DNA of 64,000 nucleotides from Thiomonas sp. FB-Cd (lineage in GTDB: Bacteria; Pseudomonadota; Gammaproteobacteria; Burkholderiales; Burkholderiaceae_C), in assembly GCF_000733775.1 (NCBI RefSeq), contig NZ_JPOE01000005.1, forward strand, positions 806,001-870,000, read 5' to 3'. Every line of letters begins with the position of its first letter. The stretch's first letter is position 1. Shown here in pieces: positions 33,624 through 47,998 of this stretch. The translations under genes and the position numbers were made by a program. The notes under the pieces were generated by a model. The model did no database searches, had not been told where the DNA came from, and saw only the letters and a list, made by a program, of their open reading frames with translations.

Positions 33624-33665
33624 GCCGGCGTGGCGAAATCGGTAGACGCAACGGACTTAAAATCC
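33624..33665 (+). tRNA. 5' part of the chromosomal tRNA-Leu(UAA), cut by island integration
   Basis: The sequence starts GCCGGCGTGGCGAAATCGGT and runs through the D arm to the anticodon stem and loop (ACGGA CTTAAAA TCC). It then departs from a tRNA into island DNA. The acceptor strand GCCGGCG pairs perfectly with CGCCGGC at 47988-47994. The 3' part lies 14.3 kb away at 47936-47998. Joined at the shared 13-bp core the two parts form a complete tRNA-Leu(UAA) with CCA and no intron. As it stands neither part can make a tRNA. Its promoter now reads toward the island integrase gene. Confidence 0.93.
33653..33665. repeat. left attachment core (attL), GGACTTAAAATCC
   Basis: A 13-bp direct repeat with 47936-47948. 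It covers the anticodon loop and three bases on either side. Bases outside the core differ at the two ends, so the repeat is exactly 13 bp. Confidence 0.93.
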
Positions 33666-33746
33666 CCCAATTATTCTTTCTTTGGCTATTTTTAATCAAA
33701 CAAAATCAACTTGTTATAAACCGTTCTCCATTTCGCTCTAGAATCC

Positions 33747-33752
33747 GTGCAC
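33747..33752. promoter_or_regulatory. GTGCAC motif near attL, possible integrase arm site
   Basis: GTGCAC occurs here, 82 bases inside the left core, and repeatedly near the right end at 47754-47759, 47767-47772, 47859-47864 and 47868-47873. Short motifs repeated at both ends of an integrated element are often arm-type integrase or excisionase sites. The left copy is single and the motif short, so this is tentative. Confidence 0.35.
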
Positions 33753-33776
33753 ACTTTTTGTGTATGAGGAAGCAAA

Positions 33777-34994
33777 ATGGCAACGATTCGTCGTCTCCCC
33801 AGCGGGAGCTACCAAGCGCAGATTCGGCGCGGTAAGCACTACGTCTCGAGGACCTTCGCGGCCGAGGGTGAGGCGAGGCAGTGGGCTCAGGACGAAGAGG
33901 GGCGTCTTGTCAAAACGCTCATTGATGCACGGGTAACCCGCGGTAAGGAACGCTCCTTCGCTGACGTCGCCGCTGAATATTTTCAAAGCCCACGCTACGA
34001 AGATAAGGCGGAAGCAACACGCAGGCGTGAAGCTGTATGCGCCAAGTCCGTGCTGACTGTCCTCGGACGATTGGCGGTAGCCGCCATCGAAACCGCTGAC
34101 GTCCAGGAGTACATCGATAAACGACGGCGTGACAAAGGAGTGGGCGGTCGCAAGCTGGCTGGTGACACGGTACGGCTGGACCGCGCGTTCATCAGTTCCG
34201 TATTCCGATTTGCGATGGCCAAGGGCTACGCGCGCTCCAACCCGGCTCGCTCCTCTCTTGATATGCCAGCCCGGCACGAGCCTGAAGAGCGTGTATCCAT
34301 CGTGCAACGGGTTCACCTGGAGACTGCAGCACGGGCCTTGCGCGACGATGAGCGCACCAACACGGCGATGCTCCCTTGGCTCGTGCTGTGCATGACCACT
34401 GGAATGCGGCCCGGCGAAGCCGCAAAGATACGCACCTCCTGGGTGAATCTCGACAAGCGAGAAATCCGCATCCCGGCAGTGGAGCACAAGCCACGGCACG
34501 CTCGCATCGTGCTTCTTACCGACGACAGGTGTATCGACCTTCTTGCCGGTCAAATGGTCCAGGCCGAGGCAGCGGGCAGCGAGTACGTGTTCTTCAGCCG
34601 CGCACGAAAAACTGGTGACCCAGTGCCCTATCGGTATAGCCACGCCTTCGCACTGCTGCGCAAGCGGGCTGGCCTACCCTCGGCTGTCAAGCCACATACG
34701 ATGAGACACGAATGGATTAGCACGCTCTACGAAGGCACGCAGCTCTCAGATGGACAGATTGCGGCACTCGCGGGCGACAAGAGCATCCTTTCACTCGACC
34801 GTTATCGACACTTGCGGGTCAACTCGCTGCGCAGCTCCGTAGACGAACTGACCGCCATCGTTCTCAAAGAACGTCAAGCTCAGCTGCGCCTGGATGCCAA
34901 AAAACTAGGCAAGGACGTGAAGAAGCTCCTCGGGCGGAGTCTGCCACCTGAATGGTTGGAAAACCCACCCGACCCCACGACTCTCGATGATTGA
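33777..34994 (+). CDS. int: tyrosine-type site-specific integrase
   Basis: A 405-residue recombinase presumed to catalyse insertion and excision of the island at the tRNA core. N-terminal arm-binding region (MATIRRLPSGSYQAQIRRG), core-binding domain about residues 60-165, then the catalytic domain with R211 in TGMRPGEA, K238, H307 and R310 in HTMRHEW and nucleophile Y343 in SLDRYRHL. All catalytic residues are present, so it should be active. GAGGA lies just before the ATG. It starts 111 bases from the attL core, in line with the interrupted tRNA promoter, which may drive it after integration. Confidence 0.93.
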   Translation: MATIRRLPSGSYQAQIRRGKHYVSRTFAAEGEARQWAQDEEGRLVKTLIDARVTRGKERSFADVAAEYFQSPRYEDKAEATRRREAVCAKSVLTVLGRLAVAAIETADVQEYIDKRRRDKGVGGRKLAGDTVRLDRAFISSVFRFAMAKGYARSNPARSSLDMPARHEPEERVSIVQRVHLETAARALRDDERTNTAMLPWLVLCMTTGMRPGEAAKIRTSWVNLDKREIRIPAVEHKPRHARIVLLTDDRCIDLLAGQMVQAEAAGSEYVFFSRARKTGDPVPYRYSHAFALLRKRAGLPSAVKPHTMRHEWISTLYEGTQLSDGQIAALAGDKSILSLDRYRHLRVNSLRSSVDELTAIVLKERQAQLRLDAKKLGKDVKKLLGRSLPPEWLENPPDPTTLDD

Positions 34995-35385
34995 CGTCTA
35001 CAGGCAAACCGCAGCCTAAGACCTTGCCGGTGCCCACCTCGGCCCATCCGCTTCGCCGCCATGGCAGGCGATAAACGGCATTGCTACACAGTTCACCACA
35101 TCACTCGGTGAATTGCTATGCCCTACTGCGCTTGTGCGTCTCTCCCCTCGCCTCCTAGTCTGCGGCGCTGCCCCAGCACATCCTGGCGCCTCCGGCTCGG
35201 GGAACTGCCCCACCGCGGCCGCGAAATCAAGCCTCATCAACTCAGATAACGACAATTGCCCTGCTAGGAGGCGGGGCGGCGCTCGCATCATGCGAGCACA
35301 GGACACTTTAGAAATGGCGGTAACGTACCGCGACCAAGGTAAATTTTCGGAGCCGCTTGACTGACTGGCAGGGCTGGAGACAGCC
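34995..35385. other. intergenic region before the replication gene
   Basis: No gene is well supported. A short frame at 35290-35364 (MRAQDTLEMAVTYRDQGKFS) ends 21 bases before the repA start and could be a leader peptide for translational control, but it has no good ribosome binding site. I saw no clear iterons. Confidence 0.35.
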
Positions 35386-36360
35386 TTGCAACTTGCACCC
35401 CATTTCGAGCCCTCACGACTCGCTCGTCGCCCCTATTGCACCGACGATAAGGCCTTCGGCCTTCAAATTCGCGGCCAAGCGTCCGCACTTGAGCACCGGT
35501 ACATCCAGGCTAACTCACCTGCATCGCAGTTCCGCATCATCCTAGACATCGACCACGACGTTCGAGGTTCTGCACATGGGCGCTATTGGCACGATGACTA
35601 CGGCGCGCCAGAACCGAGCTGGACAGCAATAACACCCGGAACAGGCCGCGCTCATGTCGCATACGAACTCGCGGTCCCGATAGCCAAGCACGGCCAGGCT
35701 CGCTCTGGGCCCATCCAATACGGCGCTGCTGTCGAAGCTGGCTTGGCCGTCAGGCTGCGTGCCGACCCCGGCTATGTCGGGTTGGTCTGCAAAAATCCTC
35801 TACACCCTGACTGGGATACCGTGCCAGGTCGTTTAGAACCCTACGACCTGGCTGAGCTGGCGGAGTGGATAGACCTCACACCGAAGGCCGAGCTACGAGA
35901 ATCGGCGGGCGGTGCCCTTGGCCGGAATTGCCTCCTGTTCGAGCATCTGAGCCACTGGGCCTATCGGACGGTGGTGCCCTTCAAGTCAAGCGGAGGCCGC
36001 TGCGACGGCTGGGAGGCCGCCATACTCCAGCAGGCGCTGCAGCTCAATGATTTCTCTGAGGCAGATGTGGCGCGACGTGACCCGCTCGCCTACAACGAAA
36101 TCAAGGCAACCGCACACAGTGTGGCCCGGTACACTTGGCGGCATTTCAGCGCCGCATCTAAGCAAGCCTTGATAGACCGAACCCATACCCCTGAACAACA
36201 GGCTGCTCGGGGCCGCCGGTCTGGTGAGGCGCGTCGAGCAGCAACGCAAACCTCGCGCGCAACCGCGAGCATGCTTATGGCGCAGGGAAAAAGCACCCGA
36301 GCCATCGCTGCCGAACTGGCGGTCAATCAGTCCACCATCAGCCGCTGGCTGGCCACCTGA
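35386..36360 (+). CDS. repA: plasmid-type replication initiator (replicase/PriCT family)
   Basis: A 324-residue protein read from TTG 35386, which has GGAG seven bases upstream; no ATG or GTG exists between the upstream stop and the conserved region. RIILDIDHDVRG, GTGRAHVAYELAVPIAKHG, ADPGYVGLVCKNPLHPDW and LGRNCLLFEHLSHWAYR are the motifs of the plasmid replicase family that primes theta replication. The following 70 residues (AYNEIKATAHSVARYTWRHFS) are PriCT-like. The C-terminus (GKSTRAIAAELAVNQSTISRW) is a helix-turn-helix. It implies the island is, or derives from, a plasmid. Confidence 0.85.
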   Translation: MQLAPHFEPSRLARRPYCTDDKAFGLQIRGQASALEHRYIQANSPASQFRIILDIDHDVRGSAHGRYWHDDYGAPEPSWTAITPGTGRAHVAYELAVPIAKHGQARSGPIQYGAAVEAGLAVRLRADPGYVGLVCKNPLHPDWDTVPGRLEPYDLAELAEWIDLTPKAELRESAGGALGRNCLLFEHLSHWAYRTVVPFKSSGGRCDGWEAAILQQALQLNDFSEADVARRDPLAYNEIKATAHSVARYTWRHFSAASKQALIDRTHTPEQQAARGRRSGEARRAATQTSRATASMLMAQGKSTRAIAAELAVNQSTISRWLAT

Positions 36361-36503
36361 TGCAGAAACCTATATCAGATAACAGCGCTTGCGAAACCAA
36401 AAAAAAGGGAGGTGCGCCGAGCATGACGGAGGTGGACCCGTAGGTGCCAGGCGATGCCGACCCAGCGTTGCAGTTACGCTCGGCTGCATCAACGCCAAGG
36501 CGA

Positions 36504-39500
36504 CTACACGCCGCTATCGAGCACCGTGAGCAAGTCGGCCGGGTGCCGAACCATCCGGTAGCTCCACGCACCGTAACGGCCGTCGTGGTTCACGGCTCCA
36601 CACCAGCGATGCGCCGCGGCAGCTTTGATTTCGGCATCGCCGAGCTCGCCCTTGACTTCGACTATCAGCCGCCTACCGTCGGTCAACTCCACGAGAAAAT
36701 CCGGGAGGTATTTACGTCGAAGTCCATCTTTGCGATACGGCACCACGAAACCGAGGTGGTCATTCTTGACCCAGCGTTTGACACGGATGTGGGCATCCAA
36801 TGCGGTGGCTGCAGCCTGCTCCCACGTCTTGGTGTCGGCCACAATGGCGTTGAGGTGGCACTTTTGCGCGGGCCACGGCTGCCGACCGGTGTAGAACTCC
36901 ACATAGCGGGTTGAACGCTCTCCTGCACTGCCCGGCGCGACAACTGGCCGTTCGCGGGCCTTGCCACTCTCGTCTACGGCCTGGACGGCATCGAGCAGAA
37001 TCCCGACCGCCTTCTGAAAATACGGATTGAGCGCTACGTCTTGTGGGGCTCGGTTACCACGGCAATCGAGCTTGGACGCCAGGAACTGCTGGGTAAATCC
37101 GAGCAGCTGCGGGAACAGCCGGTGCATTGGAATTTCCTCGCCGCGCTCCCGCACCCATTGCTGAGCCAAGACCTTTGCCAGCGTGAAGGCGACCTGCTGC
37201 ACGCGCACCTTTGAACGCCACTGCGCAAGGTCCACCACACCAGCAGCTCCAGGGCCGTACGCGGCCAGAGTCCCGTCCACCGTGGTCAGCCCCTTCATCA
37301 AGGTGATGTCGGGCACCTCCATCGGGTCCAGAGCCAAGGTTGGCACTTTGGGCCAATCGACCGCCAGACGCGTGATGCCGGGGTCCACATAGCCTTCAAC
37401 CACCGGGAACGTGATTTCGTACTCGGACTTCTCGGGAACTGCGTAGATTTGATTCGCGGGAGGCGATGGCGGTTGCTGCGCACCGCCCTCCACCTTGAAC
37501 GGAATCAGCTCGAACGGCACACCGAACACCTTGGCCGTCTCTTCCCGAAAAAAGCCCGTCGCTTCGTCCACTGCGTAGGACGTGCGGCGTAGCGCGCGCC
37601 CGACGACCTGCTCGCACAGCAACTGCGAGCCGAAGGGCCGCAGGCCCACAACATGGGTGACGGTCGTTGCGTCCCAGCCTTCAGACAACATCGCCACGCT
37701 GATGATGCAGCGCACGTCCCGGCCAGGTGGAATGCTTGGGTCGATGGTGACGAGGCCGTTGTCCTCCTCCTCCATCGCCTTGTGGTTGTGCTTGTCCACC
37801 AAGGCCGCATATTCCTCGGGCACCTTGTTGCCCGGCCACGCTGTCCGACCGATGGTTTCCAGAACGAAACGCAGCCGACGTGCTTCGTCGTTCTTGCCGC
37901 CCCCTTCCGCAATATCCTCGGCAACCTTGCTATCCACGCGCACGGTCCACTCGCGGCCTGGCGCGTTACGGAATTGTTCAGGTGCAGCTCCATAGATTGG
38001 ATTGCCGTTGGCCAGCCAATCATGCAGTTCCTTGGCCAGAGCGGTATCTCGGCAGACGATGATGAATACGGGAGGCACGTCCGTTTTGCGGTGACCTGCC
38101 TCAAACTGCGCCTGCCAAGCTGCGGCCGTCTGCCGCCATTCATCGGCCAGCTGCATGATGGGCTGGGTGGCATAGCGCATCAACACATCAGGCGTGAGCT
38201 TGCCGCTGGCTCCGTCTTTCTCAGCCAGCTCCTGCACCCACCGCCAGACGTTGAAATAGGCCGGTGTCTGCGTGCCGCCGATGTCCTGAGTTGGCAACTG
38301 CGGGATTTTGACTAGCCCGGCCTCGATGGCTTCGAGCAGACTGAAATCCGAGACGACCCAAGGGAACGGTTTGCCGACCTCATTGCCACTGCCCTGGATA
38401 TAGAACGGCGTCGCGGACAAATCCAAGCAAAGACGAATCCCATTCTTCTTTCCGCCCAGCGCGTTGTTGATGCGGTCCAGACCCTCGACCCAGACGGTCG
38501 CCTCGCGGGCATCGACCTCGGCGGTTTCCTCGTCGATGGCGTAGCTGTCCTCGGCATCCAGCTTGCCCCGCCGGTAAGCGTGGTGCGCCTCGTCATTCAT
38601 CACGAAGATGGCCGAGCTTCGACCCTTCCGGTTACCCAGCACGCGACGCAAAAACGCCGCGTCGCTTTCGTAGTAACGCACCTCCCGGACATCGAACCCA
38701 GTCAGGCGTCCCTTAGCGTCGCGCAACTCGCGCACGATATCAAAGGCTCCGGTCAGCGCTTGTTGCCGAATGTCGGCTTCGCTCAGGTCATCCCGGCCGC
38801 CGAGCTTGACGGTGCGCAGCTTCTCGACCGGAACCCCACGCTTGACCACGCGGGCCGATTTGCCATTCACGTCGCTCAGTTCGCGCCGTTCGAGGTTGTG
38901 CCAATTGGTGATAAACACCTCCCCGCGCCGCAGGTCCGGCATGCGTTGCAGGGGAACTAGCTGACGGGTGCGGTACAGGCTCAGCTCATCTAAATTAGGG
39001 TCCAGCTCCCGCAATCGGTCGCGGATAGTGACGTTCGGGCAAACAAGCAGCACCGTGTCGGAATATGCCGGGTTTTGGGGCTGGGCCACCTTATTCAGAA
39101 TCGACCACGCGGCGAGCATCCCCATGACGGTCGTCTTGCCGCTGCCCGTAGCCATCTTGAGGGCGTAGCGGACAAAGGCCTTGTAACCTGCCTCTTTGGC
39201 ATCGCCGCCGGGCTCATCGGTCGGTACGTTCACCCCTTGCTTGAGGTCGTCCGGCCCTTCCACAAGAAACAGCACGGTTTCGACGGCTTCGAGCTGGGCA
39301 TAAAACAGCCGTTGCTGCCGGTCAGGCGACTGCCAAAGTTCAAGCAATTCGCGGGTAACCTTGGTGGCTCCCGCATAGTCTCGCTCGCGCCATTCCTGGC
39401 GGCGCTGGCGAATCAAATTCGCCAAGTCCAGCAGATATTCCTGGCCTTTCGAGGCGTCATCGAACAGTGCTTCCTGCTTCTTGGTCTTGCGCCCTCGGGC

Positions 39501-39650
39501 CGCACGGTCAGGCACGCGGAAGAAATACGACGCAGGCCGTCGGCCGGAACGTTTCTCGGGAGGTTTGGCAACCTCGATATGCCAATGAAATTGCGGCTTG
39601 TCGTAGGGCGAATTGATGATGGGCGCTTCGACGGCGTTGATTTGGCTCAT
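36504..39650 (-). CDS. res: type III-like restriction subunit: helicase with C-terminal nuclease
   Basis: A 1048-residue SF2 helicase-nuclease. Walker A ATGSGKT at 167-173, DEAH at 353-356, DLSATPF as motif III, and QVVGRALRR as motif VI. Near the C-terminus YLPDFLVELTDGRRLIVEVKG is a PD-(D/E)xK nuclease site. The start ATG overlaps the DUF262 stop by four bases, and that gene overlaps the methyltransferase gene, so the three are one translationally coupled operon. The likely role is ATP-driven cutting of unmodified invading DNA. The gene is complete. It is convergent with repA. Confidence 0.92.
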   Translation of the reverse strand: MSQINAVEAPIINSPYDKPQFHWHIEVAKPPEKRSGRRPASYFFRVPDRAARGRKTKKQEALFDDASKGQEYLLDLANLIRQRRQEWRERDYAGATKVTRELLELWQSPDRQQRLFYAQLEAVETVLFLVEGPDDLKQGVNVPTDEPGGDAKEAGYKAFVRYALKMATGSGKTTVMGMLAAWSILNKVAQPQNPAYSDTVLLVCPNVTIRDRLRELDPNLDELSLYRTRQLVPLQRMPDLRRGEVFITNWHNLERRELSDVNGKSARVVKRGVPVEKLRTVKLGGRDDLSEADIRQQALTGAFDIVRELRDAKGRLTGFDVREVRYYESDAAFLRRVLGNRKGRSSAIFVMNDEAHHAYRRGKLDAEDSYAIDEETAEVDAREATVWVEGLDRINNALGGKKNGIRLCLDLSATPFYIQGSGNEVGKPFPWVVSDFSLLEAIEAGLVKIPQLPTQDIGGTQTPAYFNVWRWVQELAEKDGASGKLTPDVLMRYATQPIMQLADEWRQTAAAWQAQFEAGHRKTDVPPVFIIVCRDTALAKELHDWLANGNPIYGAAPEQFRNAPGREWTVRVDSKVAEDIAEGGGKNDEARRLRFVLETIGRTAWPGNKVPEEYAALVDKHNHKAMEEEDNGLVTIDPSIPPGRDVRCIISVAMLSEGWDATTVTHVVGLRPFGSQLLCEQVVGRALRRTSYAVDEATGFFREETAKVFGVPFELIPFKVEGGAQQPPSPPANQIYAVPEKSEYEITFPVVEGYVDPGITRLAVDWPKVPTLALDPMEVPDITLMKGLTTVDGTLAAYGPGAAGVVDLAQWRSKVRVQQVAFTLAKVLAQQWVRERGEEIPMHRLFPQLLGFTQQFLASKLDCRGNRAPQDVALNPYFQKAVGILLDAVQAVDESGKARERPVVAPGSAGERSTRYVEFYTGRQPWPAQKCHLNAIVADTKTWEQAAATALDAHIRVKRWVKNDHLGFVVPYRKDGLRRKYLPDFLVELTDGRRLIVEVKGELGDAEIKAAAAHRWCGAVNHDGRYGAWSYRMVRHPADLLTVLDSGV

Positions 39651-41395
39651 CCCTCCCCTCCTGCCTTAGCAGTCGCCAGCTCGGGATTCACCGTTCGGTC
39701 GCAAATCTCCCAGATGCGTTGCAGCCGACGGTCTCTAAAGCTTCGATAGGTTGATTCGTCAAAGACAAGCTTCTTGGTATCTGTCGCGAACTCATCAAGG
39801 AGAAGGTGCTTCTCGATGGGGCAACCGTACGACTTGAGGCGTCCAAAGTAACTATCCGGGAGCTCTGCGCGCTTGCGGATGTTGTCGGTAGCTCCCACGA
39901 AACGGAAGTTGCCCAGGGTATTGACCTCGGCGCCGCCAAGGCCCAGTTTGGTAGACAAAGCATGCCGAGGGTAGATGTGGTCGATGTGTGGTTCGTTGCC
40001 CTTGCACTTCACATCGAAAGGCGAGCCCCCCATCTGGTCCACATATACCAGGTTGAGCAGCAAGAACCGTAGCCGCGTCTGTTCCAAGTCTTGCTTATAC
40101 AGGTTGGTCGAATAGCCGCGGCCGGAGAAGTAGTCCTTGACGGACTGCATCGGAAAACTTCCTGTGCAGTGCTGGCCAACCACCGAATGAAGGCCGTTGA
40201 TGACCTTATCCGTGCCATGGGAGTACCACCCGAAGAGCTGAGCCTTGTAGTAGTACCCCCGCATCAGCGCCCGGCTGCGCTCGTTGGGCTTCGGGTTGAA
40301 ATACAAGTAATCGAACAGCGGGATAAAGCTATTGTGGCTGCGAACCACCTTCTCGGAATAGACTTTCAAATCTGTCTTCAGAAAGTCATGAAGCTCCTGA
40401 AATGCTGCCTCGGCCTTGTCCCAACCCTCCTTCATATCTGCGAGCAACTTAGCACCATCGGCGCCCGTAAATTTCTCCGCCGACGCCTCGGCTCCGCGCC
40501 CATGCACGACTAGCAAGCACTTCAGCGGGAATGTCTTGTCGAAGCCGATTTTGGTGCTGTTGAGCAGTGCGGTGGTCTCTTCAATCGCCTCCTCGATTTC
40601 GTCCCAGCCCTCCTTCATGGCGGCGAACATCAGGTCAGAGGCGTCAAGTTTGGTGCCACCGGAGTTCACGCGGACGAAAATATCCAGAACGGTCCCGTAG
40701 GTGTAATTGTTCGCTACACCATCGAGCTCTTGAATCCAGAAATGCTTGTCCTCGCGCAGCAGAGAGACCAGTTGCGCGAAATTGCGTCGTACCCGCTTTT
40801 GACGTGCTTTCTGGTCCGCCGAATTGGGCCGTGCCTCCGCAGGCTGGGCATCCTCCGCCTCATCGAGGTGCTCATTCATGTCATCGGCGAGTTCCTCCGA
40901 GTTTCGCTGCCCATCCTTGCCAACCAGGTCGGCCACGCGGTACCACGGACGAGGCAACGCCACCTTGGAGAATTTGAGCGCGTAAAGCAAGCCGTCTTCA
41001 GACATGACGTCGCCATTGCTTGTGTCGAAGTAAGCCTCCAGTCGCTCTTCGTTGGCGCCTTTGATGGCACCGGCAAACGTCGCATACAGGGTCTGCAAAC
41101 GCTGCTGTCCGTCCAGCACGAATGTTTTTTCGCATCCAGCCTTGCTAACGTTGGGCTCGTAGTAGTCGCTCAGGTTGGGGTCCCATTCGACCTCTTCCAT
41201 GAACTTACGAGCCTTGATTTCGTCCTTGGTTTTCCAGAACAGCAGCGTCTGAATGGGGTAGTTACGCATCAAGCTATCGAACAGCTTGAGCATCTGCTCT
41301 TCCTCCCACACAAAGGGTCGCTGGATGTGCGGCAGGAACAGCCCCTTATTGATGCTCTGAATGAGGTTAAACAGCGAACTCGGCTTGTAGCTCAT
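39647..41395 (-). CDS. DUF262/DUF1524-type (GmrSD-like) nuclease
   Basis: A 582-residue protein. The N-terminal DUF262 domain shows LPHIQRPFVWEEEQM, the nucleotide-binding FVLDGQQRLQTLYATF and IFVRVNSGGTKLDASDL. The C-terminal part has HIDHIYPRHAL and NTLGNFRFVGATDNIRKR, an HNH-like nuclease arrangement as in DUF1524. This is the layout of GmrSD, a type IV enzyme that cuts DNA with modified bases. It sits between mod and res with four-base overlaps on both sides, so it is part of the same defence operon. It may hit phages whose base modifications block the type III-like pair. Confidence 0.88.
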   Translation of the reverse strand: MSYKPSSLFNLIQSINKGLFLPHIQRPFVWEEEQMLKLFDSLMRNYPIQTLLFWKTKDEIKARKFMEEVEWDPNLSDYYEPNVSKAGCEKTFVLDGQQRLQTLYATFAGAIKGANEERLEAYFDTSNGDVMSEDGLLYALKFSKVALPRPWYRVADLVGKDGQRNSEELADDMNEHLDEAEDAQPAEARPNSADQKARQKRVRRNFAQLVSLLREDKHFWIQELDGVANNYTYGTVLDIFVRVNSGGTKLDASDLMFAAMKEGWDEIEEAIEETTALLNSTKIGFDKTFPLKCLLVVHGRGAEASAEKFTGADGAKLLADMKEGWDKAEAAFQELHDFLKTDLKVYSEKVVRSHNSFIPLFDYLYFNPKPNERSRALMRGYYYKAQLFGWYSHGTDKVINGLHSVVGQHCTGSFPMQSVKDYFSGRGYSTNLYKQDLEQTRLRFLLLNLVYVDQMGGSPFDVKCKGNEPHIDHIYPRHALSTKLGLGGAEVNTLGNFRFVGATDNIRKRAELPDSYFGRLKSYGCPIEKHLLLDEFATDTKKLVFDESTYRSFRDRRLQRIWEICDRTVNPELATAKAGGEG

Positions 41396-44151
41396 GCCTT
41401 CACCTCTAGTACGCGCATCAGCTCGTTGCCACGCTCATCGATGACTTTGACCGCCACGCGCCGTTTCGGCCCTAAGGCAAAGGGTTCGCTGACCGTGCCC
41501 GCCAAGTGCGACCACACGGAGGGGTCGAACTCCGCTTTTAGCGATTTTTGCAGGTTGTCCCACGTGGCCGTTTTAGGAAAGAACACCTGGGTTGCATAGA
41601 AACACATGCCGTCGTAATCGGTATCCAGCATCCAGGCAGGCATGTTCTGCCCCTCGATGCTCTCCTGGTCCATCGTGGCCGGGTTAAAAATATCCAAACC
41701 CAGCAATTCGACCTCGTAAAGGTCGGCACCGTCGGTATTTTTCTTGCCGGTCTTGCGTATCACGGTATCCGGTAACCCTGTAACGGAAAAAATCTCGCTG
41801 GCCCGGCTCGTCTTGAGCAGGTCGCTCATGGCCACATCAGGAGTTACTGTTACGTAGTTACAAGCGATGCGCAGCTTTGCACGGTCCTCCAGCAGCTCGC
41901 GGGCCTTCGCCTGGATGGCGAAGCCAAAGAAATAAAGCTGGAGAAATTTCAGAAAATACGCCTCGCGCGCCGCCTCAAACACCACGTCCGACGAGATAGC
42001 CCCATCCTCGGGGCCGAACACGATGCCGATGCGCTGCCCTTCTGTGTCAACCGCCTCCGCGTGCAGCACGTCACTATCGGACATGCGCCGTATGTCGGCC
42101 AGCACCAGTTCCCGGTTACCGGGCAGTCGCAGCGTCTTGGATTGGCGCAGCACCTGGGTCATGCGCTCGATGTGGGTCGCAGGGTCGCCATAGCGCGCTG
42201 CCGGGTCGGCCACGGCCAGCGGCAGGCCGCCGTTCGCCGCATCGGCCGCGCCGATGGCGTCGTCGAGCAACTGTGCCGAGGCAGGCTGCGCAGCGGCGGC
42301 GGGTTCATCGTCCACCACTTGGACCGGCGCGATGGTGGCCTCCACCACGAAAGGCCCCGCCACGCGCACCACGCCGGTATTCACTTCGGGCCGGTCCACC
42401 AGCACTTCGGTGGCCGGTGCTTCATCGTTGGCGATGGACTTCAGCGTGATGTGCGGCACCAGACCGCCGACCTCTTCCCCCTTGCGATTCTGGCGGCGCC
42501 TGTATTCGAATCCGCCGACTGGGCCGGCCTGCGGGCTCTTCAACTCGTAGTACGGGAAAGTCGCTGTCAGCAGGCGCTGCCGCGCCAGCGCGAGCGGCAC
42601 GCGCGATGTGTCGCAGGTAATCCAGCGTCGCCCCCACTGCTCAGCAACATAGGCAGTCGTTCCCGAACCGCAGGTAGTGTCAAGAACTAAGTCACCTGGG
42701 TCTGAGCACATGAGCATGCACCGCTCAATGAACTTTTCTGCGGTCTGCACGACGTACAGCTTCGCTTTGGCGGCGGGCTTATCTGTCCAGCAATTGTCGA
42801 ATTGCTGCCAAGGGAAATCAGTTTGATAGCTCTTGAAATATGGGTCCTTCCCCAATACAAACAGGCGGTTTCGCTCTTTTAGCCGCTCAATCCCTCTCGG
42901 ATTTGTTGACCAACTCTTTCCCCCTGCGGGATAGAAAGTCTTTCCGCTCAGTTCGAACTCAAAAGTACAACTTTCGGTGAATCCTGACGACGTGAGGTTA
43001 CGGCGACGAAATATGCCGGAATGGTCTTTGAGGGCATCAAACTCTTCCTCGCTGAGGACTCTATAGCCCAAGGGTTGTGATTTGTCGTCAATAAACTTGT
43101 ATTCGCGGTCTCCGCTTATGTCACGAGACTTGAAGATGGGTCTATACTTCTGCCGCGCCGCATCTTTTGCGTACCAAAGGATGTAGTCGTAGACCCGGGC
43201 TAGGCCTTTTTGCCCAAGGGGGTCCGCAGCCTTAAACGCTATTTGTGCAGAGAAATTCCTTTCACCGAAAATCTCGTCGAGTATTTCCCGGACATGATGA
43301 ATGTTTTCGTCTGCAATTTGAACAAAAATGCTTCCGGACTCGTTCAATAGCTCTTTGGCCAAGAGCAGGCGGTCTCGCATGTACGTCAAGTATGAATGCA
43401 GACCCATTTCCCAAGTATCACGATACGCCTTCACCATTTCTGGTTCGCGCGTCATATCGTCGTCGCCACCGTGCTTTACGTCTCGACGGCGAATAAATGG
43501 CTGAAAATTCGACCCGAATTTCACCCCATAAGGCGGGTCCATATAAACCATCTGCACCTGGCCACCCAAACCCTCGAACTCCAACAACGAGTTCATGATT
43601 TGCAGGCTGTCGCCCAGAATCATCCGGTTCTGCCACGGCCCCTTGTGCTCGTAGGCGTCCAGCTTGTCGGTCACGTCCAGCCCGCCGTCGCCGAACAGGT
43701 CCAGCGTCGTGCCCTTGGCCTTGCGGCTCTTGATGCCGTCGAGGATGGCCTTGGTCGATTGCCGCTCGTGCACGAACAGCGGCACCGTGGGCACCTCAAT
43801 CTGGTGGCGCTCGGCCTTCCCCGCCCAGTTCAGGAAGGGCTGTGACAGACTCTTGAGCAGGTCAGCCGCAGCCTTCAGCGACTGCACCTGCACCCCACCA
43901 CCAGCCCAAACCTGCGGCGCGGCGAACACCATCGCTTCGCCCTCGGTGGCGCAGCGCTGCACCAGGCAAATCAGCCACTCGGCCAGGTCGCGGTTACGGT
44001 TCTCGTCCCAGCTCAAGGCTGGGTCGAGGCTGCTGTCGTAACGGTAGGTCTTTGCAGGTCTTTTGGCAGAAAACTGGTCTTGCAAGCCCACATCCGGGCG
44101 TTGCGTCGCTTCTTGGCTGTGGGTGTAGTTTGTTGTTGTCGGGTTGGCCAT
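41392..44151 (-). CDS. mod: site-specific DNA methyltransferase (type III Mod-like, beta class)
   Basis: A 919-residue N6-adenine or N4-cytosine methyltransferase. MDPPYGVKF (motif IV) precedes LDTTCGSGTTAYVAEQW (motif I), the beta-class order of type III Mod proteins. The 350-residue C-terminal part after the catalytic domain is unusual in length and includes a long Ala/Val/Asp-rich linker; it may contain target recognition or the contact to the nuclease partners. The Shine-Dalgarno AGGGA lies in a perfect 12-bp hairpin four bases before the start codon, so translation may be regulated. First gene of the mod-DUF262-res block. Confidence 0.92.
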   Translation of the reverse strand: MANPTTTNYTHSQEATQRPDVGLQDQFSAKRPAKTYRYDSSLDPALSWDENRNRDLAEWLICLVQRCATEGEAMVFAAPQVWAGGGVQVQSLKAAADLLKSLSQPFLNWAGKAERHQIEVPTVPLFVHERQSTKAILDGIKSRKAKGTTLDLFGDGGLDVTDKLDAYEHKGPWQNRMILGDSLQIMNSLLEFEGLGGQVQMVYMDPPYGVKFGSNFQPFIRRRDVKHGGDDDMTREPEMVKAYRDTWEMGLHSYLTYMRDRLLLAKELLNESGSIFVQIADENIHHVREILDEIFGERNFSAQIAFKAADPLGQKGLARVYDYILWYAKDAARQKYRPIFKSRDISGDREYKFIDDKSQPLGYRVLSEEEFDALKDHSGIFRRRNLTSSGFTESCTFEFELSGKTFYPAGGKSWSTNPRGIERLKERNRLFVLGKDPYFKSYQTDFPWQQFDNCWTDKPAAKAKLYVVQTAEKFIERCMLMCSDPGDLVLDTTCGSGTTAYVAEQWGRRWITCDTSRVPLALARQRLLTATFPYYELKSPQAGPVGGFEYRRRQNRKGEEVGGLVPHITLKSIANDEAPATEVLVDRPEVNTGVVRVAGPFVVEATIAPVQVVDDEPAAAAQPASAQLLDDAIGAADAANGGLPLAVADPAARYGDPATHIERMTQVLRQSKTLRLPGNRELVLADIRRMSDSDVLHAEAVDTEGQRIGIVFGPEDGAISSDVVFEAAREAYFLKFLQLYFFGFAIQAKARELLEDRAKLRIACNYVTVTPDVAMSDLLKTSRASEIFSVTGLPDTVIRKTGKKNTDGADLYEVELLGLDIFNPATMDQESIEGQNMPAWMLDTDYDGMCFYATQVFFPKTATWDNLQKSLKAEFDPSVWSHLAGTVSEPFALGPKRRVAVKVIDERGNELMRVLEVKA

Positions 44152-44155: not shown

Positions 44156-44185
44156 GTCCCTGCATTGGCGTGTCAATGCAGGGAC
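44156..44185 (-). promoter_or_regulatory. perfect 12-bp hairpin covering the mod ribosome binding site
   Basis: Arms GTCCCTGCATTG (44156-44167) and CAATGCAGGGAC (44174-44185) with a six-base loop. In the mod transcript the 3' arm contains AGGGA, the likely Shine-Dalgarno sequence, and the hairpin ends four bases before the ATG. It could block translation or be an operator for a dimeric repressor. Confidence 0.75.
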
Positions 44186-44236
44186 ATCCGCCCTTGGCGA
44201 CCACCGCCAGAACGCCCGCATCGAGCTCGGGGCAAT

Positions 44237-44470
44237 TTACCAAACATCCATCGCAGAATCGGCACTATGAAACACATCGGTACACCCTGAAGATGAAAAC
44301 GACGACCAATCCGACAGCGACGAGCTACTCGTGCAGATATCCTGCACCACAAATCCAGCCTGCAACCCGTTAGAGCACGGTGCGATGGCATGGTCATCTG
44401 TGATGTAGGACCGACAGACCTCTGACGGACCGGCCAAGACCCAACCGCATAGAACATTCCAAAGTTTCAT
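44237..44470 (-). CDS. putative small protein, 77 aa
   Basis: The start ATG 44470 is preceded by AAGGA eight bases away, the best ribosome binding site in this area, and follows the ardC-like stop by 46 bases. The product begins MKLWNVLCGWVLAGPSEV and then has a Ser-rich stretch with several cysteines. No family is recognised. The good start signal supports translation, but the composition of the second half is untypical, so only the first part may be meaningful. It lies between ardC and mod on the same strand. Confidence 0.4.
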   Translation of the reverse strand: MKLWNVLCGWVLAGPSEVCRSYITDDHAIAPCSNGLQAGFVVQDICTSSSSLSDWSSFSSSGCTDVFHSADSAMDVW

Positions 44471-44516
44471 TTCGTTTTCCTTTTAATGAGCACCCGCACT
44501 GTGGGCGGGCAGGTTT

Positions 44517-45380
44517 TCAGGTGGATGCTTTTGGTTGGCCCGCAGCCAAGATGCGCTGCGCTGCCGAAAACATGCGCTTTGCCGATTTCTCCGGCAATTG
44601 CCCGCCATCGAGCCAACCTTGGATGTAGTGGCGCGATTCCGGCAGGCCAGGCAATCCCAGCAGAGCGCAGAGCACATAAGCGACACCTTCCGCCTCGACT
44701 TCCTGAAGCGAACGCGACAGCATGAGCGTGTCCGAGCATTCGCTCTGCGCTGTGTGGCCGAGCACCACATGCGCCAGCTCGTGAAATCTTGTCTTGTGCG
44801 GATAGAGCGCAACCGGATTGACTGCGATTTGCCGCCTTTGTGCGTAGCCTTGCACGTTACCGTTGAGCATGGAAAACCGAGCCTCCGTGACATCCAGCGT
44901 CACTAGGGCCAGGCCGGCATCCCATGCCGGAATCGCCAACGGCGACAACTCGACCTCTGCGCCCTCGGTCTGCTCTAGAGAAAACCAGTTCCGCGCAAGC
45001 TTGAACAGAGTGAACGTGTCCGCTTCATCGGTGCCGTTCTGGTCGCCCTTGGCCTGCCGTTTGAGCGTCACAGGCATGTACAGGGTTAACGCCTTCTCGC
45101 CCTTGCGCACCGCCCGTCCTAAGTCTTGCCAGCCCCGAAAACTAGCAATCGGCGATAGCGGAAGACCTCGGCTCAACAGTTGCGACGCGGCGAACAGCTG
45201 ATTGCCCAGGCTGTAGCGGTGAAACCGGCTGTAGGCCTTGCTGACCAGCCCCGGCTCAGTCAGTGCGTGTTGCAACAGATTGGAGAACACACGTTCTGCT
45301 GGTTGGTGAGCCTCGGGGGGATTGGGGGGAACGCCCAGGGTTGGATTGGGGTTCGTGGTGGTGATGGTCGCATTCGTCAT
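44517..45380 (-). CDS. ardC: ArdC-like antirestriction protein with zinc metallopeptidase motif
   Basis: A 287-residue protein. The N-terminal half (SLGNQLFAASQLLSRGLPL, GWQDLGRAVRKGEKALTLY) is the single-strand DNA-binding ArdC domain. The second half has RFHELAHVVLGH, with HELAH at 200-204 as zinc site, and EVEAEGVAYVLCALLGL supplying the likely third ligand E231. ArdC proteins of plasmids protect incoming DNA from host restriction. It is upstream of the mod operon and could act with it: protecting the island on entry before its own methylation is established. Start ATG 45380 has GGAGAG upstream. Confidence 0.88.
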   Translation of the reverse strand: MTNATITTTNPNPTLGVPPNPPEAHQPAERVFSNLLQHALTEPGLVSKAYSRFHRYSLGNQLFAASQLLSRGLPLSPIASFRGWQDLGRAVRKGEKALTLYMPVTLKRQAKGDQNGTDEADTFTLFKLARNWFSLEQTEGAEVELSPLAIPAWDAGLALVTLDVTEARFSMLNGNVQGYAQRRQIAVNPVALYPHKTRFHELAHVVLGHTAQSECSDTLMLSRSLQEVEAEGVAYVLCALLGLPGLPESRHYIQGWLDGGQLPEKSAKRMFSAAQRILAAGQPKAST

Positions 45381-46233
45381 GGTTACTCTCCTTTCACACT
45401 GTGTCTGCTCGTCGGAGCCGCCTCAAGGGAGAGGTCGCGCGCAGGTGGGAGGCCGGAATAAGCCGGGATGCAGGTCGGCATGACAGAGCCGCTGGCGATG
45501 GCGTGGCGACGTGCTTTTCCCCGGCCCGGTCGAACCCGAGCACGGGCCTTGGTGGCTCAGAAAGAGCTGAGTGGGAAAGGGATGGGCGAATGCGACCGGC
45601 CTTCGTCACCATGCCGTTTGGCACGGTCTGCTTGCAGACGGTGCCAGTTGCCTCGGCAAGCATCGCGCGCAACACCGGGCACAGCCGGGTGTGTAGGGGG
45701 AGCCACGGCGGCGCCGTGGGGCCAGGGCGTTCAGCCCGCGGCCCCGCAAGGTGCGCCCGGCCCCAGACGGGCCGCCTTGCGGCGGGGGAGCCAAGCACCA
45801 GTCTGCGTGACGCAGCCCGCCAGGGTGCCGACCGTCCAGGGAGACAGGCGAAGCCCTGCGCCGCAGGCAGGCAGCCCCCAGGCTGCCGGTGGAGCTTGGG
45901 GGGCGCAGCCCGGCGCCCAAGCCGCAGGCGCGGGAAACCCGGTGGAGTCCGAGCCACAGGCGACGGACCGCAGGCGCAGCCGTAGCCGGTGCAGCGTCCA
46001 GCGCAACGGTTCACCGGGTTTCCCGCGCCTTGGATGCCGCGCCAGCGGTGTCCAAGGTGTGGGCGCCCGGATTCAAAGGATGCGCGCCCCGTCCAGGGGC
46101 AAGAGCCGCGGCTGAGCGTCCAGCGAAGGAAAAGTGGCGTCGTCCGCCGTGTTCACCTCCCCCGTGCGCCTCCAGGCGCATGGGGACATGCATGGCAGGG
46201 CTGTCGCTATACGTGTCAGGAGGAAGACAGAAG
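45381..46233. other. GC-rich non-coding block with inverted repeats, possible replication or transfer origin
   Basis: This 850-base stretch lies between divergent ardC and the winged-helix gene. It has a hairpin at 45620-45645 (GGCACGGTCTGC-TT-GCAGACGGTGCC, one mismatch), a hairpin CCACGGC-GGC-GCCGTGG at 45703-45719, and an 18-bp perfect inverted repeat at 45927-45944 and 46012-46029. Open frames across it are Arg/Pro/Gly-rich on both strands. The structures and the nearby repA and ardC suggest an origin, but neither oriV iterons nor a nic site can be named. Confidence 0.5.
45927..46029. repeat. 18-bp perfect inverted repeat, arms 67 bp apart
   Basis: GGCGCGGGAAACCCGGTG at 45927-45944 and its exact reverse complement at 46012-46029. 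The length makes chance unlikely even in GC-rich DNA. Confidence 0.9.
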
Positions 46234-47094
46234 ATGACGCAACGCGACGGACAAGATATGGCCAGGCTGAACGAGCAGCGCATTCTGAAAGCGCTGCATA
46301 AGTATGGCTGGCTGCGCACGCGCGATATTGCCGCGCTGCTCTGGATGCGGGGGCGGCCAAAACGACCCGGCGAATTTTTGCCGGAGCTTATCGAGCTCAC
46401 CGCGAGCGCTCTGCGCATGGCGCAGCGCTCGGTCGCCCGACTGCGCAAGCAGCATTCCGTCATTTCAGCCAAGGGGCCGGACGGCAGTGTGTTGTATGCG
46501 CTATCCGAAGCGGGAGCTCGCGCTTTACTAGCACAAGGAATCCCGGCCCGGTCTGGCAAGGACCAGCTACGCCGCGTGAGTTTGAGTTACTACCACCATA
46601 GGCGGTTAGCCAACGAGTTGGCGATTGTGGCAACGCTTCAGGGCTATCGCGTGGCGACCGAATATGAGATTGCGAAAGGGCAATGGTTCGGCGGCAAGGC
46701 AGGCATCCTCGGCAAAATACCCGACGTCCTGGTACGCGACGGAAAGAATGTGGGGTGGGTCGAGGTCGAGCGCAGCCGACGTAATCGTCCAGACTACGAC
46801 AAACTGTTGACCTGGCTAATGACCATTAGAAAATCGCACACGACAGGTGCCACGGCTTTGGCGCCTTTGCCTGGTGATATGCAACTGTCGCGAGTTCTAT
46901 TTGCCTGCAACCGCGCGTTCGTCAATAAGCTTCGTGATGACCTGGCTCGTCGCGGGTGGCCTGTGACGGACCAACGCAACTATCTGGCTGAAATCCCGTT
47001 GCTATACGTTTCAGAGGCCAAATTTATCGTGAAATCCGGCAGCGACCGAGGAGCCGCAGAACACTCTGACGGCGAGATGGACAGTATGGGCTGA
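46234..47094 (+). CDS. winged-helix protein with PD-(D/E)xK-like segment
   Basis: A 286-residue protein read from ATG 46234, which has AGGAGG about ten bases before it. The first 110 residues (RILKALHKYGWLRTRDIAALLW, SVARLRKQHSVISAK) form a winged-helix DNA-binding domain. The second part has KIPDVLVRDGKNVGWVEVERSRRNRPDY, a pattern of the restriction-endonuclease-like fold also seen in replication-relaxation and mobilisation proteins. It stands next to the inverted-repeat block and probably acts on it. The frame continues upstream to 45889 but without a start signal. Function inferred from position only. Confidence 0.7.
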   Translation: MTQRDGQDMARLNEQRILKALHKYGWLRTRDIAALLWMRGRPKRPGEFLPELIELTASALRMAQRSVARLRKQHSVISAKGPDGSVLYALSEAGARALLAQGIPARSGKDQLRRVSLSYYHHRRLANELAIVATLQGYRVATEYEIAKGQWFGGKAGILGKIPDVLVRDGKNVGWVEVERSRRNRPDYDKLLTWLMTIRKSHTTGATALAPLPGDMQLSRVLFACNRAFVNKLRDDLARRGWPVTDQRNYLAEIPLLYVSEAKFIVKSGSDRGAAEHSDGEMDSMG

Positions 47095-47414
47095 ACGGAG
47101 CGCTCCTCCCCAAGGAACGACACGGACGCCTCATGCAGCCCGCTCAGTGGCGGGGGCCTCTGCCGAGGTCGTTGCTGGAGTCGAGGAAAGGACAGGATGG
47201 GCCGGCCCTGCTTCCTTAAAAAATTCATTCTCTGACGCAGACCCGTGTCAGACTCGGCGCCGGCCCGCCGATTTTTTCCAGTATTTCGGCTAACAAGCCC
47301 CTTGGCAAAGGGCTCCGTCGAGCCAGTGAGCTATGGGGCTTGCGGACCCACTGGCTGAACTCTGGTGGCCTGTTCCTAAGTCGGCATCGGTCGTTCAATT
47401 AGACTTCGCGCAAG
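47095..47414. other. intergenic region before the intron-containing tRNA
   Basis: It contains a small hairpin CCCGC-TCAGTG-GCGGG (47139-47154) and an inverted repeat AGCCAGTG / CACTGGCT (47321-47328, 47349-47356). The tRNA promoter should lie here; TAGACT at 47400-47405 is a possible -10 box. No gene is supported. Confidence 0.4.
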
Positions 47415-47737
47415 GCCCCGATGGTGAAATCGGTAGACACAGCGGACTTGATGAAAATTTGAGCACTCTGACGGGAAACCACAGAGTGAATCCCGTCAAA
47501 TTCGGTGAACCCCCTGAAGCTGAGCTTCGAGGCAACGCCGAGCCAATCCCGTTATTCGGGCAGGTGTAGAGAGTGGACGGCGGGGGCCTAAGGCGGTGCA
47601 TTTATCGCTATGGCCAAGGCGCACTCCAGACCCCAAACGCGACCAACTGGTTGCGGCAGCGAAAGCTGTAGTGGGTATGAAAATCCGCCGCTTACCCGAA
47701 AGGGAGCGTGCCGGTTCGATTCCGGCTCGGGGCACCA
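47415..47737 (+). tRNA. tRNA-Leu(UAA) interrupted by a group I intron, carried by the island
   Basis: The 5' exon is 47415-47449 (begins GCCCCGATGGTGAAATCGGT, ends GCGGACTT) and the 3' exon 47680-47737 (begins AAAATCCGC, ends TCGGGGCACCA). Acceptor arms GCCCCGA and TCGGGGC pair perfectly, the T arm CCGGTTCGATTCCGG is standard, CCA is encoded, and the long variable arm fits leucine. Joined exons give anticodon loop CTTAAAA, anticodon UAA. The intron lies between anticodon bases U34 and A35. Because the chromosomal UAA gene is split, this may be the cell's only source of tRNA-Leu(UAA). Its body differs from the chromosomal tRNA, so it is not a local copy. Confidence 0.93.
47450..47679 (+). ncRNA. 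group I intron in tRNA-Leu(UAA), cyanobacterial-type (IC3-like)
   Basis: A 230-nt insert between U34 and A35. It has the conserved core pieces of the cyanobacterial and plastid tRNA-Leu intron: GACGGGAAACC, GGCAACGCCGAGCCAA, GCAGGTGTAGAGAGTGGACG and near the 3' end GGCAGCGAAAGCTGTAG (a GAAA-capped stem). It follows a U and ends in G, as group I introns do. A stem CACTCTG/CAGAGTG is at 47464-47488, and GACGGGA (47470-47476) can also pair with TCCCGTC (47491-47497). No homing endonuclease frame fits inside. Self-splicing is expected but not shown. Confidence 0.92.
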
Positions 47738-47750
47738 ACATCCTTCAATT

Positions 47751-47775
47751 CGCGTGCACATATTTCGTGCACGCG
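47751..47775. repeat. inverted repeat CGCGTGCAC/GTGCACGCG near the island's right end
   Basis: Nine-base perfect arms with a seven-base AT-rich loop, 14 bases after the tRNA CCA. It may help end the tRNA transcript or be an integrase/excisionase binding site. GTGCAC recurs at 47859-47864 and 47868-47873 and once near attL. Confidence 0.6.
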
Positions 47776-47935
47776 ACTCCCATTGTCCTGCGCAAAATAT
47801 AGGCAATTTTTTGATGCTTCCCTCGGCACTGGGGCATTCATGGGTCTTCGTTGAATTTGTGCACGTTGTGCACGAAAAGACGCATAAATATAAATAGTTT
47901 CAATCACTTATATCGACTTAACGAATACAATTAGA

Positions 47936-47948
47936 GGACTTAAAATCC
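47936..47948. repeat. right attachment core (attR), GGACTTAAAATCC
   Basis: Exact copy of 33653-33665. To its left is AT-rich island DNA and to its right the chromosomal tRNA continues with GTCGC. Confidence 0.93.
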
Positions 47949-47998
47949 GTCGCTTCCTGTAAAGGGGCATGCGGGTTCGACCCCCGCCGCCGGCACCA
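47936..47998 (+). tRNA. 3' part of the chromosomal tRNA-Leu(UAA)
   Basis: From the anticodon core through variable arm (CGCTTCCTGTAAAGGGGCATG), T arm (GCGGGTTCGACCCCCGC), acceptor strand CGCCGGC and encoded CCA. Its 5' half is at 33624-33665. No 5' half precedes it, so it cannot be processed into a tRNA. Confidence 0.93.

What the first reader, a model, noticed from the sequence alone, without database searches (positions are those of the whole stretch)
33624..47998. Island splits the chromosomal tRNA-Leu(UAA) and brings its own replacement
Seen: 13-bp cores at both ends, a chromosomal tRNA-Leu(UAA) cut through the anticodon loop with one part at each end, and a complete tRNA-Leu(UAA) with different body sequence inside the island. 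Most tRNA-targeting elements restore the tRNA at one end; this one does not. Inference: the element inactivates a gene the cell is likely to need for UUA codons and pays for it with a substitute, which also makes loss of integrated island DNA costly unless excision is precise.
Basis: partly seen in the sequence, partly recalled or inferred. Interest (0 to 1): 0.95.

Follow-up and report, generated by a model that had tools for sequence, protein, structure and literature searches.

The report
Island with intron-armoured substitute tRNA gene
An integrase-bearing DNA island splits a bacterium's own gene for the leucine tRNA with the UUA-reading anticodon, of which the genome has no other intact copy, and carries a likely substitute gene whose anticodon loop is interrupted by a predicted self-splicing intron, which would keep the island's integrase from cutting the substitute as well.

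Summary
Confirmed, and more unusual than reported. A 14.3-kb island (integrase, plasmid-type Rep, type III-like restriction cargo) splits the chromosomal tRNA-Leu(UAA) in the anticodon loop at a 13-bp core. Three congeners hold the intact gene in the same flanks. No other tRNA-Leu(UAA) was found except the island's own, which carries a 230-nt group I intron between U34 and A35, inside the core: spliced, it contains the perfect core; unspliced, it does not. Two elements with related integrases (Paucimonas lemoignei; an IMG/VR provirus) split the same gene and carry a complete substitute, intronless but altered at the core edge. Conjugative elements with another integrase type, one sharing the published ICEKKS102Tn4677 att, also carry intron-bearing substitutes: 24 of 44 intron-bearing tRNA-Leu loci examined have the broken native 5' half 180-227 bp upstream, anticodons matching in 24 of 24 (13 UAA, 11 CAA); spliced substitutes contain the core in 24 of 24, unspliced in 0 of 24. 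Best reading: break-and-substitute integration with an intron-protected substitute. Break and substitute are seen in sequence; splicing, protection and the cost of losing the island are inferred. Ten open-access library searches listed no description.

The parts
33624..33665 (+). 5' half of the chromosomal tRNA-Leu(UAA), ending in the core (attL)
   Evidence: joined with 47949-47998 it gives a complete tRNA; intact in congeners
33653..33665 (+). 13-bp core GGACTTAAAATCC, left copy
33777..34994 (+). tyrosine integrase (405 aa)
   Evidence: Phage_integrase PF00589 E=3.6e-17, phrog_1 integrase; R211, K238, H307, R310, Y343 invariant in 6 aligned sequences, itself included (catalytic roles recalled)
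35386..36360 (+). plasmid-type replication initiator (Replicase + PriCT_1); start codon uncertain
   Evidence: 38-40% identical to replication initiators of plasmids in the 20 best rows shown
36504..39650 (-). BPTD_3080-family restriction endonuclease (ResIII), cargo
   Evidence: NCBIfam NF046055, 1142 bits over cut-off 800
39647..41395 (-). GmrSD_N protein, PADLOC HEC-05, cargo
41392..44151 (-). type III-like DNA methyltransferase, cargo
   Evidence: PF01555; MTase_III 465 bits
44517..45380 (-). ArdC-N-like anti-restriction protein
46198..47094 (+). ORF of unknown function, no Pfam, NCBIfam, PADLOC or PHROG match; start assumed
47415..47737 (+). substitute tRNA-Leu(UAA) gene with intron
   Evidence: ARAGORN with intron search; spliced form folds as tRNA-Leu(UAA) with encoded CCA
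47450..47679 (+). group I intron (230 nt) between U34 and A35; splits the 13-bp core 6+7
   Evidence: RF00028 21.2 bits, E=0.005, below the gathering score of 50; covariation in 15 introns, this one included
47936..47948 (+). 13-bp core, right copy
47936..47998 (+). 3' half of the chromosomal tRNA-Leu(UAA) (attR)

Best explanation
The island is inserted in the anticodon loop of the only chromosomal tRNA-Leu(UAA) gene without restoring it, and carries a likely substitute tRNA-Leu(UAA) gene whose copy of the integrase core is interrupted by a predicted self-splicing group I intron, so that the substitute would be no target for the integrase yet would still give a normal tRNA. Seen in the sequence: the split at a 13-bp core, empty sites in three relatives, no other UAA leucine tRNA gene found in this genome, a conserved and covarying group I fold, and a perfect core in the spliced but not in the unspliced substitute. 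Inferred: that the integrase at 33777-34994 made the insertion, that the intron splices, that the substitute is charged and decodes UUA, and that the intron protects it. Why an intron: the core lies over the anticodon loop, which cannot be changed freely without changing decoding, so interrupting the DNA and repairing the RNA is a way to hide the site. A further inferred consequence is that the cell depends on the island until precise excision rebuilds the native gene, and that the occupied locus no longer offers a site to other elements using it.
For: Split, uniqueness and empty sites. Intron; group I structure with a P3/P7 pseudoknot on 15 introns (91.0% of cells paired against 32-43% when slid; covariation score 0.374 against at most 0.079; P3 and P7 each have pairs changed on both sides). 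Related integrases, same strategy: L065 (Paucimonas lemoignei, 40% identical) and L076 (IMG/VR provirus, 37%) have the tRNA-Leu(UAA) 5' half just before the integrase, a 3' half far off at the other end, and a complete tRNA-Leu(UAA) after the integrase; the joined halves give tRNA-Leu(UAA) in 2 of 2. Second integrase type: 24 of 44 intron-bearing tRNA-Leu loci have the native 5' half 180-227 bp upstream with the same anticodon (13 UAA, 11 CAA); 15 of 20 attL/attR pairs tried rebuild a native tRNA-Leu. Spliced substitutes contain the element's core in 24 of 24, unspliced in 0 of 24; same for the window. The two intronless substitutes both lack GGACTTAAAA; they read AGACTTAAAA with a matching change across the stem. 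Dependence: 12 of 13 UAA-element genomes have no uninterrupted UAA gene by pattern, and the one hit (G178) is the 3' half beside the integrase; 0 of 11 CAA-element genomes have an uninterrupted CAA gene by pattern. UUA is used: 35 of 1,817 Leu codons, in 22 of 44 mechanically called long ORFs of the window.
Against: No splicing, charging, excision or integration assay. The window intron scores below Rfam's gathering threshold, as do the introns of the 15 related loci scanned. 20 of the 44 intron-bearing loci show no split half; some sit directly in a tRNA-Gly/Cys cluster, so the intron also exists without a visible island. The window-type integrase relatives L065 and L076 have no intron in their substitutes. 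The intact-gene patterns are strict and can miss diverged genes: G367 and G378 gave no UAA hit though only a CAA element was seen there, and G323 gave no CAA hit. In 5 of the 22 genomes with a split half (G168, G043, G298, G309, G378) no integrase match at E <= 1e-30 was found. No closer relative of the island's integrase was found among the 28 same-genus genomes. Whether P. lemoignei has a further intact tRNA-Leu(UAA) was not settled.
Confidence: 0.72

Rival explanations
1. The intron is a bystander: the substitute gene happened to come from a lineage whose tRNA-Leu genes carry this intron, and it has no part in protection.
For: 20 of 44 intron-bearing tRNA-Leu loci have no split half nearby and several sit in tRNA clusters; related introns are in tRNA-Arg(CCU) and CAU-anticodon tRNAs; L065 and L076 have intronless substitutes.
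Against: In elements with different cores and anticodons the intron always splits the core (24 of 24 loci with a half; these loci were found by searching with an intron-bearing gene, so elements with intronless substitutes would have been missed). The two intronless substitutes instead differ at the core edge. Of 22 genomes with intron-bearing UAA genes and no half detected (20) or not examined for one (2), none holds a close (90% or more) relative of the UAA-element integrase and 3 hold one at 66-68% (not a random sample).
Confidence: 0.18
2. The island tRNA is ordinary cargo (as phages carry tRNAs), and breaking the native gene was an accident survived by luck.
For: Phages and plasmids do carry cargo tRNAs (general knowledge).
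Against: The substitute's anticodon equals that of the broken gene in 24 of 24 loci and in the window, L065 and L076.
Confidence: 0.04
3. The two chromosomal halves are transcribed and joined in trans, as split tRNAs of archaea are, so the native tRNA is not lost.
For: Both halves are intact up to the core.
Against: The only + strand promoter-like site found in 47100-48050 overlaps the core itself and is a 9-of-12 consensus match; bacteria have no known bulge-helix-bulge splicing machinery (general knowledge); a complete substitute is present.
Confidence: 0.02
4. Assembly error at the 13-bp core.
For: None found.
Against: Junctions lie within a 1.56-Mb contig; other elements show the same attL anatomy; empty sites in relatives are syntenic.
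Confidence: 0.01

Closest known systems
tRNA-targeting genomic islands of tyrosine integrases (Islander definition; Hudson et al. 2015, PMC4383910, passages read)
   Same: Tyrosine integrase beside attL, short direct repeat in a tRNA gene, anticodon-loop subsite.
   Different: By that definition the island restores the target gene; here neither end is restored and a separate substitute is carried. A method that looks for a regenerated tRNA plus a fragment would probably not find this layout.
ICEKKS102Tn4677 branch of the Tn4371 ICE family (PMC11448139, PMC6563109, PMC9960961, passages read)
   Same: Published att GATTTTAAG is the reverse complement of the 9-bp core CTTAAAATC read at the UAA elements of G097 and relatives; published as lying upstream of a Gly-tRNA gene (PMC11448139) and, in the review, with tRNA-Leu as main target; conjugation genes.
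   Different: The word intron was not found in those three papers by text search. The window island is not of this branch: other integrase, 13-bp core, integrase at attL and substitute at attR, no Trb genes among the proteins scanned.
Group I introns of bacterial tRNA genes (Azoarcus-type tRNA-Ile introns recalled; tRNAscan-SE 2.0 paper PMC8450103 reports tRNA-Ile2 introns in Acidovorax and Burkholderia, passages read)
   Same: Short intron in the anticodon loop.
   Different: Here it sits in an element-borne tRNA gene that stands in for the host gene the element breaks.
Randau and Soll proposal that disrupted archaeal tRNA genes are protected from integrating elements (seen as cited in PMC4390854 and PMC3293823, passages read)
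   Same: A disrupted tRNA gene hides an integration site.
   Different: There the host benefits and introns are protein-spliced; here the mobile element carries the protected gene and the intron is group I.

Membership tests
tRNA-targeting genomic island (Islander definition) | tyrosine integrase on board | tested here: met
   PF00589, phrog_1
tRNA-targeting genomic island (Islander definition) | direct repeats lie in a tRNA gene | tested here: met
   13-bp core in tRNA-Leu(UAA)
tRNA-targeting genomic island (Islander definition) | target tRNA regenerated at one end | tested here: not met
   Neither end holds a complete tRNA
Group I intron | conserved core with P3/P7 pseudoknot supported by covariation | tested here: met
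   (15 introns; P3 and P7 each have 2 pairs changed on both sides)
Group I intron | last intron base G, U before the 5' splice site | tested here: met
   Met for the window. In one search all 24 end in G; the 13 UAA introns follow U, but the 11 CAA introns follow C. Boundaries placed by ARAGORN
Group I intron | Rfam RF00028 gathering score | tested here: not met
   21.2 bits against 50; no gathering match to an intron in 16 loci scanned, the window's included
Group I intron | self-splicing | not testable with these tools
   Needs an in vitro splicing assay
Tn4371 / ICEKKS102Tn4677-type ICE (for the window island) | 9-bp att and Trb conjugation genes | tested here: not met
   13-bp core; no conjugation family among the 7 island proteins scanned
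Tn4371 / ICEKKS102Tn4677-type ICE (for G097 and UAA relatives) | att GATTTTAAG/CTTAAAATC and Trb genes | tested here: met
   Core read; TrbI, TrbL, CagX and TrbE-type families in G097. Direct comparison with the ICEKKS102Tn4677 sequence itself not done

The most novel reading that the evidence does not exclude
Break-and-substitute integration is a general strategy that arose at least twice: elements seize a host tRNA-Leu by destroying the chromosomal gene and supplying an intron-armoured one, which makes the cell depend on the element, shields the element from itself, and shuts out rivals; mobile elements of this kind are also the vehicles that brought group I introns into many bacterial tRNA-Leu genes, now seen as intron-bearing native genes after the element decayed.
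Probability: 0.4. Interest if true: 0.92.

Novelty: new variant of a known kind. Interest (0 to 1): 0.86.

Why it matters
It gives a bacterial group I intron a plausible selected job (hiding an integration site in DNA while leaving the RNA intact), offers a mechanism by which a mobile element could make an indispensable tRNA its hostage, and suggests why such elements go unseen: the default ARAGORN scan and Rfam at gathering thresholds both miss the intron-bearing tRNA here. Whether introns protect tRNA genes from integrases is an old proposal for archaea; here it can be tested directly in a bacterium with one integrase and a few attB plasmids.

Tried and rejected
Rejected: assembly artefact, accidental cargo tRNA and trans-spliced halves (see rivals). 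Filing the window island under the ICEKKS102/Tn4371 branch was rejected (other integrase, core and layout). The chance-like ARAGORN hits under relaxed settings were ignored.

Led nowhere: plasmid DNA matches to the left end and integrase (8 records, 41-48 bp each) and phage integrases (17 records, 24-28% identity); a same-genus search for the integrase (best other match 33%); an order-wide profile search found 11 more distant integrases among 399 genomes, 10 of whose loci hold an ordinary intact tRNA (Leu-CAA twice, Leu-UAA, Thr, Lys, and CAU-anticodon five times) and none a split half by my pattern, so with this integrase type break-and-substitute was seen only in the window, L065 and L076. 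The host could not be named: nearest AzlC proteins are from unnamed Proteobacteria/Betaproteobacteria MAGs.

Against my reading: 20 of 44 intron loci have no half; G367 and G378 (UAA) and G323 (CAA) gave no intact-gene hit where one was expected, 4 of 20 pairs lacked a 5' half under the strict pattern (three of these, G178, G203 and G324, show one under the looser pattern), G345 lacked both halves, and G367 was misjoined by the pattern; some joined pairs come from different contigs (G228, G221, G121); five genomes with a half gave no integrase match. Of 55 places, 44 went into: the window, two unfetched (G339, G396) and eight partial or other-tRNA matches were left out. Alignment A2 holds 15 of the 17 intron-bearing tRNA-Leu genes then in hand (L204 and L212 left out). 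My P6 columns were partly off, so two of its pairs never form. That contig C19 of G421 (3' half) is the same record as L065 is taken from its number; a second pattern match in that genome (C6) was not followed.
Full report
WHAT IS THERE. The window (contig C5 of a 4.39-Mb, 6-contig genome) holds a 14.3-kb island between two copies of GGACTTAAAATCC at 33653-33665 and 47936-47948. Left of the island lies the 5' half of a tRNA-Leu(UAA), right of it the 3' half; the joined flanks give a complete 92-nt tRNA-Leu(UAA) with encoded CCA. The 13-mer occurs nowhere else in the genome. Same-genus genomes G004, G026 (100%) and G010 (98%) have the intact gene with the window's flanks around it: 92% over 3,095 bp in G004, 89% over 1,851 bp in G026, two pieces at 82-83% in G010. 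They are the empty sites.

THE SUBSTITUTE. Inside the island, 47415-47737 is a tRNA-Leu(UAA) with another body sequence. It is not found by the default ARAGORN scan, nor by Rfam at gathering thresholds, because it carries a 230-nt intron (47450-47679) between U34 and A35. The intron matches RF00028 weakly (21.2 bits, E 0.005, gathering 50). It was aligned with 14 tRNA-Leu introns of other genomes; on these 15 the named group I structure with the P3/P7 pseudoknot pairs in 91.0% of cells, against 32-43% when the partners are slid, with covariation 0.374 against at most 0.079, and 0 of 500 shuffles reaching the observed value on any of the five measures (related sequences can exceed shuffles without structure, so the slid control counts more). 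No intron in 16 loci scanned, the window's included, reaches Rfam's gathering score.

IT IS THE ONLY ONE FOUND. All 44 tRNA matches of the genome were read for anticodon (30 loci from the search, 14 fetched): leucine anticodons are CAA, CAG, GAG and TAG. UUA is rare but used: 35 of 1,817 leucine codons, in 22 of 44 mechanically called long ORFs of the window.

THE CORE IS HIDDEN IN THE SUBSTITUTE. The spliced substitute contains GGACTTAAAATCC exactly; the unspliced gene does not, because the intron sits after the sixth of the 13 bases.

RELATED INTEGRASES ELSEWHERE. The integrase (33777-34994) has few close relatives (13 proteins at E <= 0.001 among 7,993 scored candidates, one at 73%). Two are in readable context: Paucimonas lemoignei L065 (40%) and an IMG/VR provirus L076 (37%). 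In both the 5' half of tRNA-Leu(UAA) lies directly before the integrase, a 3' half lies far off (contig C19 of the P. lemoignei genome, taken to be the same contig; base 44817 of the 44,937-base virus record), and the joined halves give tRNA-Leu(UAA). The shared cores are GGACTTAAAAT and GGACTTAAAA. Both carry a complete, intronless tRNA-Leu(UAA) on the other strand just after the integrase. Neither contains GGACTTAAAA: each has AGACTTAAAA with the pairing base on the other side of the stem changed too. So three elements break the same gene and bring a whole replacement; the window's alone has an intron in it. More distant integrases found by an order-wide profile search (11 besides the window among 399 genomes) show no split half in their loci; 10 of the 11 loci hold an ordinary intact tRNA.

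A SECOND INTEGRASE TYPE. A family-wide search with one intron-bearing tRNA-Leu found matches in 53 of 399 genomes drawn from a larger group. Of its 55 places I examined 44 (window, two unfetched and eight partial or other-tRNA matches left out): 24 have the broken native 5' half 180-227 bp upstream of the intron-bearing gene, and the anticodon agrees in all 24 (13 UAA, 11 CAA; up to five errors allowed, three or more used in G043, G178 and G298). As a control, 600 random 400-bp stretches of the 20 loci L198-L217 gave 10 matches, which by their printed sequence and place are tRNA-Leu genes or halves themselves. For 20 element ends chosen from the integrase matches, 16 had a 5' half by strict pattern, 19 a 3' half, 16 could be joined and 15 read as tRNA-Leu of the right anticodon (8 UAA, 7 CAA). 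The core is CTTAAAATC for UAA elements and CTCAAAA for CAA elements (read); spliced substitutes contain it in 24 of 24, unspliced in 0 of 24. Conjugation genes were found in the one UAA element (G097: TrbI, CagX, TrbL, TrbE-type) and the one CAA element (G121: TrbI, TrbL, TrbE-type) examined. The UAA core is the reverse complement of GATTTTAAG, the published att of ICEKKS102Tn4677 (PMC11448139 and PMC6563109, passages read); a text search found no 'intron' in those papers or in PMC9960961. Here integrase and substitute lie at opposite ends compared with the window island. The integrase is only distantly related to the window's: it aligned to 11 of the window integrase's 13 relatives at E 1e-3 or better, at 20-31% identity, but not to the window integrase itself.

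DEPENDENCE IN THOSE GENOMES. Of 13 genomes with a UAA split half, 12 have no uninterrupted tRNA-Leu(UAA) by pattern; the single hit (G178) is the 3' half beside the integrase. None of 11 genomes with a CAA split half has an uninterrupted CAA gene by pattern, while 4 of 5 others searched have one. Exceptions and limits are told under Tried and rejected.

MECHANISM. Seen: break, substitute, matching anticodons, core present only after splicing. Inferred: integration at the anticodon loop destroys the target because attP holds only the core; a substitute must be on board; an uninterrupted substitute with the same core would itself be a target, and the core lies over the anticodon loop, which decoding fixes. 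An intron breaks the DNA site and is removed from the RNA. The same break would close the locus to other elements that use it. Losing the island other than by precise excision would remove the only UUA-reading tRNA. The cargo adds a restriction-modification set, often stabilising in its own right (general knowledge).

WHAT IS KNOWN. Islander's definition requires a regenerated tRNA (PMC4383910, passages). tRNA-Ile2 introns in Acidovorax and Burkholderia are reported in PMC8450103 (passages). The idea that disrupted archaeal tRNA genes are shielded from integration is credited to Randau and Soll in PMC4390854 and PMC3293823 (passages). Ten searches of the open-access library listed no paper whose title, abstract start or passages that I saw describe an element-borne, intron-bearing substitute tRNA; only listings were seen for most. 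Papers not held, among them a DOI that I recalled as the original ICEKKS102 report and two others looked up by id, could not be read.

VERDICT. Membership in the ordinary class of tRNA-restoring islands fails at its defining feature, so I call it a new variant of a known kind.

Noticed in passing
L304 2995-3293 (NZ_CP053220.1), L305 2995-3295 (CP042640.1): An unannotated intron-bearing tRNA-Leu(UAA)-like gene lies beside aac(3)-IId on resistance plasmids: 1,257 of 72,556 plasmid records cover at least 80% of it, and 1,273 of the 1,280 records with a match are 99% identical or more; 622 of 5,426 complete E. coli genomes hold a 60-80% identical match covering at least 80% of a related query (15 rows seen). 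The link to aac(3)-IId was read in two records only. Origin and function unknown.
   Followed up: partly
L215 9968-10272, L275 1903-2209; L216, L217, L276: Similar introns in tRNA-Arg(CCU) and in CAU-anticodon tRNAs of the same family.
   Followed up: no
L199, L200, L250, L251, L265, L267: Intron-bearing tRNA-Leu(UAA) sitting directly behind tRNA-Gly/tRNA-Cys with no split half: native or domesticated.
   Followed up: partly
window 36504-44151: Three-gene restriction set with a GmrSD_N/HEC-05 gene between the methyltransferase and the BPTD_3080-family endonuclease.
   Followed up: no
L076 5685-6746 and 3308-4507: The provirus that splits tRNA-Leu(UAA) carries an RNA ligase (phrog_548) besides a terminase.
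   Followed up: no
L325 2501-2740 (CP094621.1): A conjugative Bradyrhizobium plasmid has an unannotated match to the intron-bearing tRNA-Leu about 2 kb from trbH.
   Followed up: no
L214 9800-11506: G049: intron-bearing tRNA-Leu(UAA) (355-nt intron) immediately followed by a different tyrosine integrase.
   Followed up: no
window 33747-33765, 47754-47772 and 47859-47873: GTGCA-type inverted repeats near both island ends, with similar ones before the integrases of L065 and L076; possible accessory integrase or regulator sites (read by eye).
   Followed up: no
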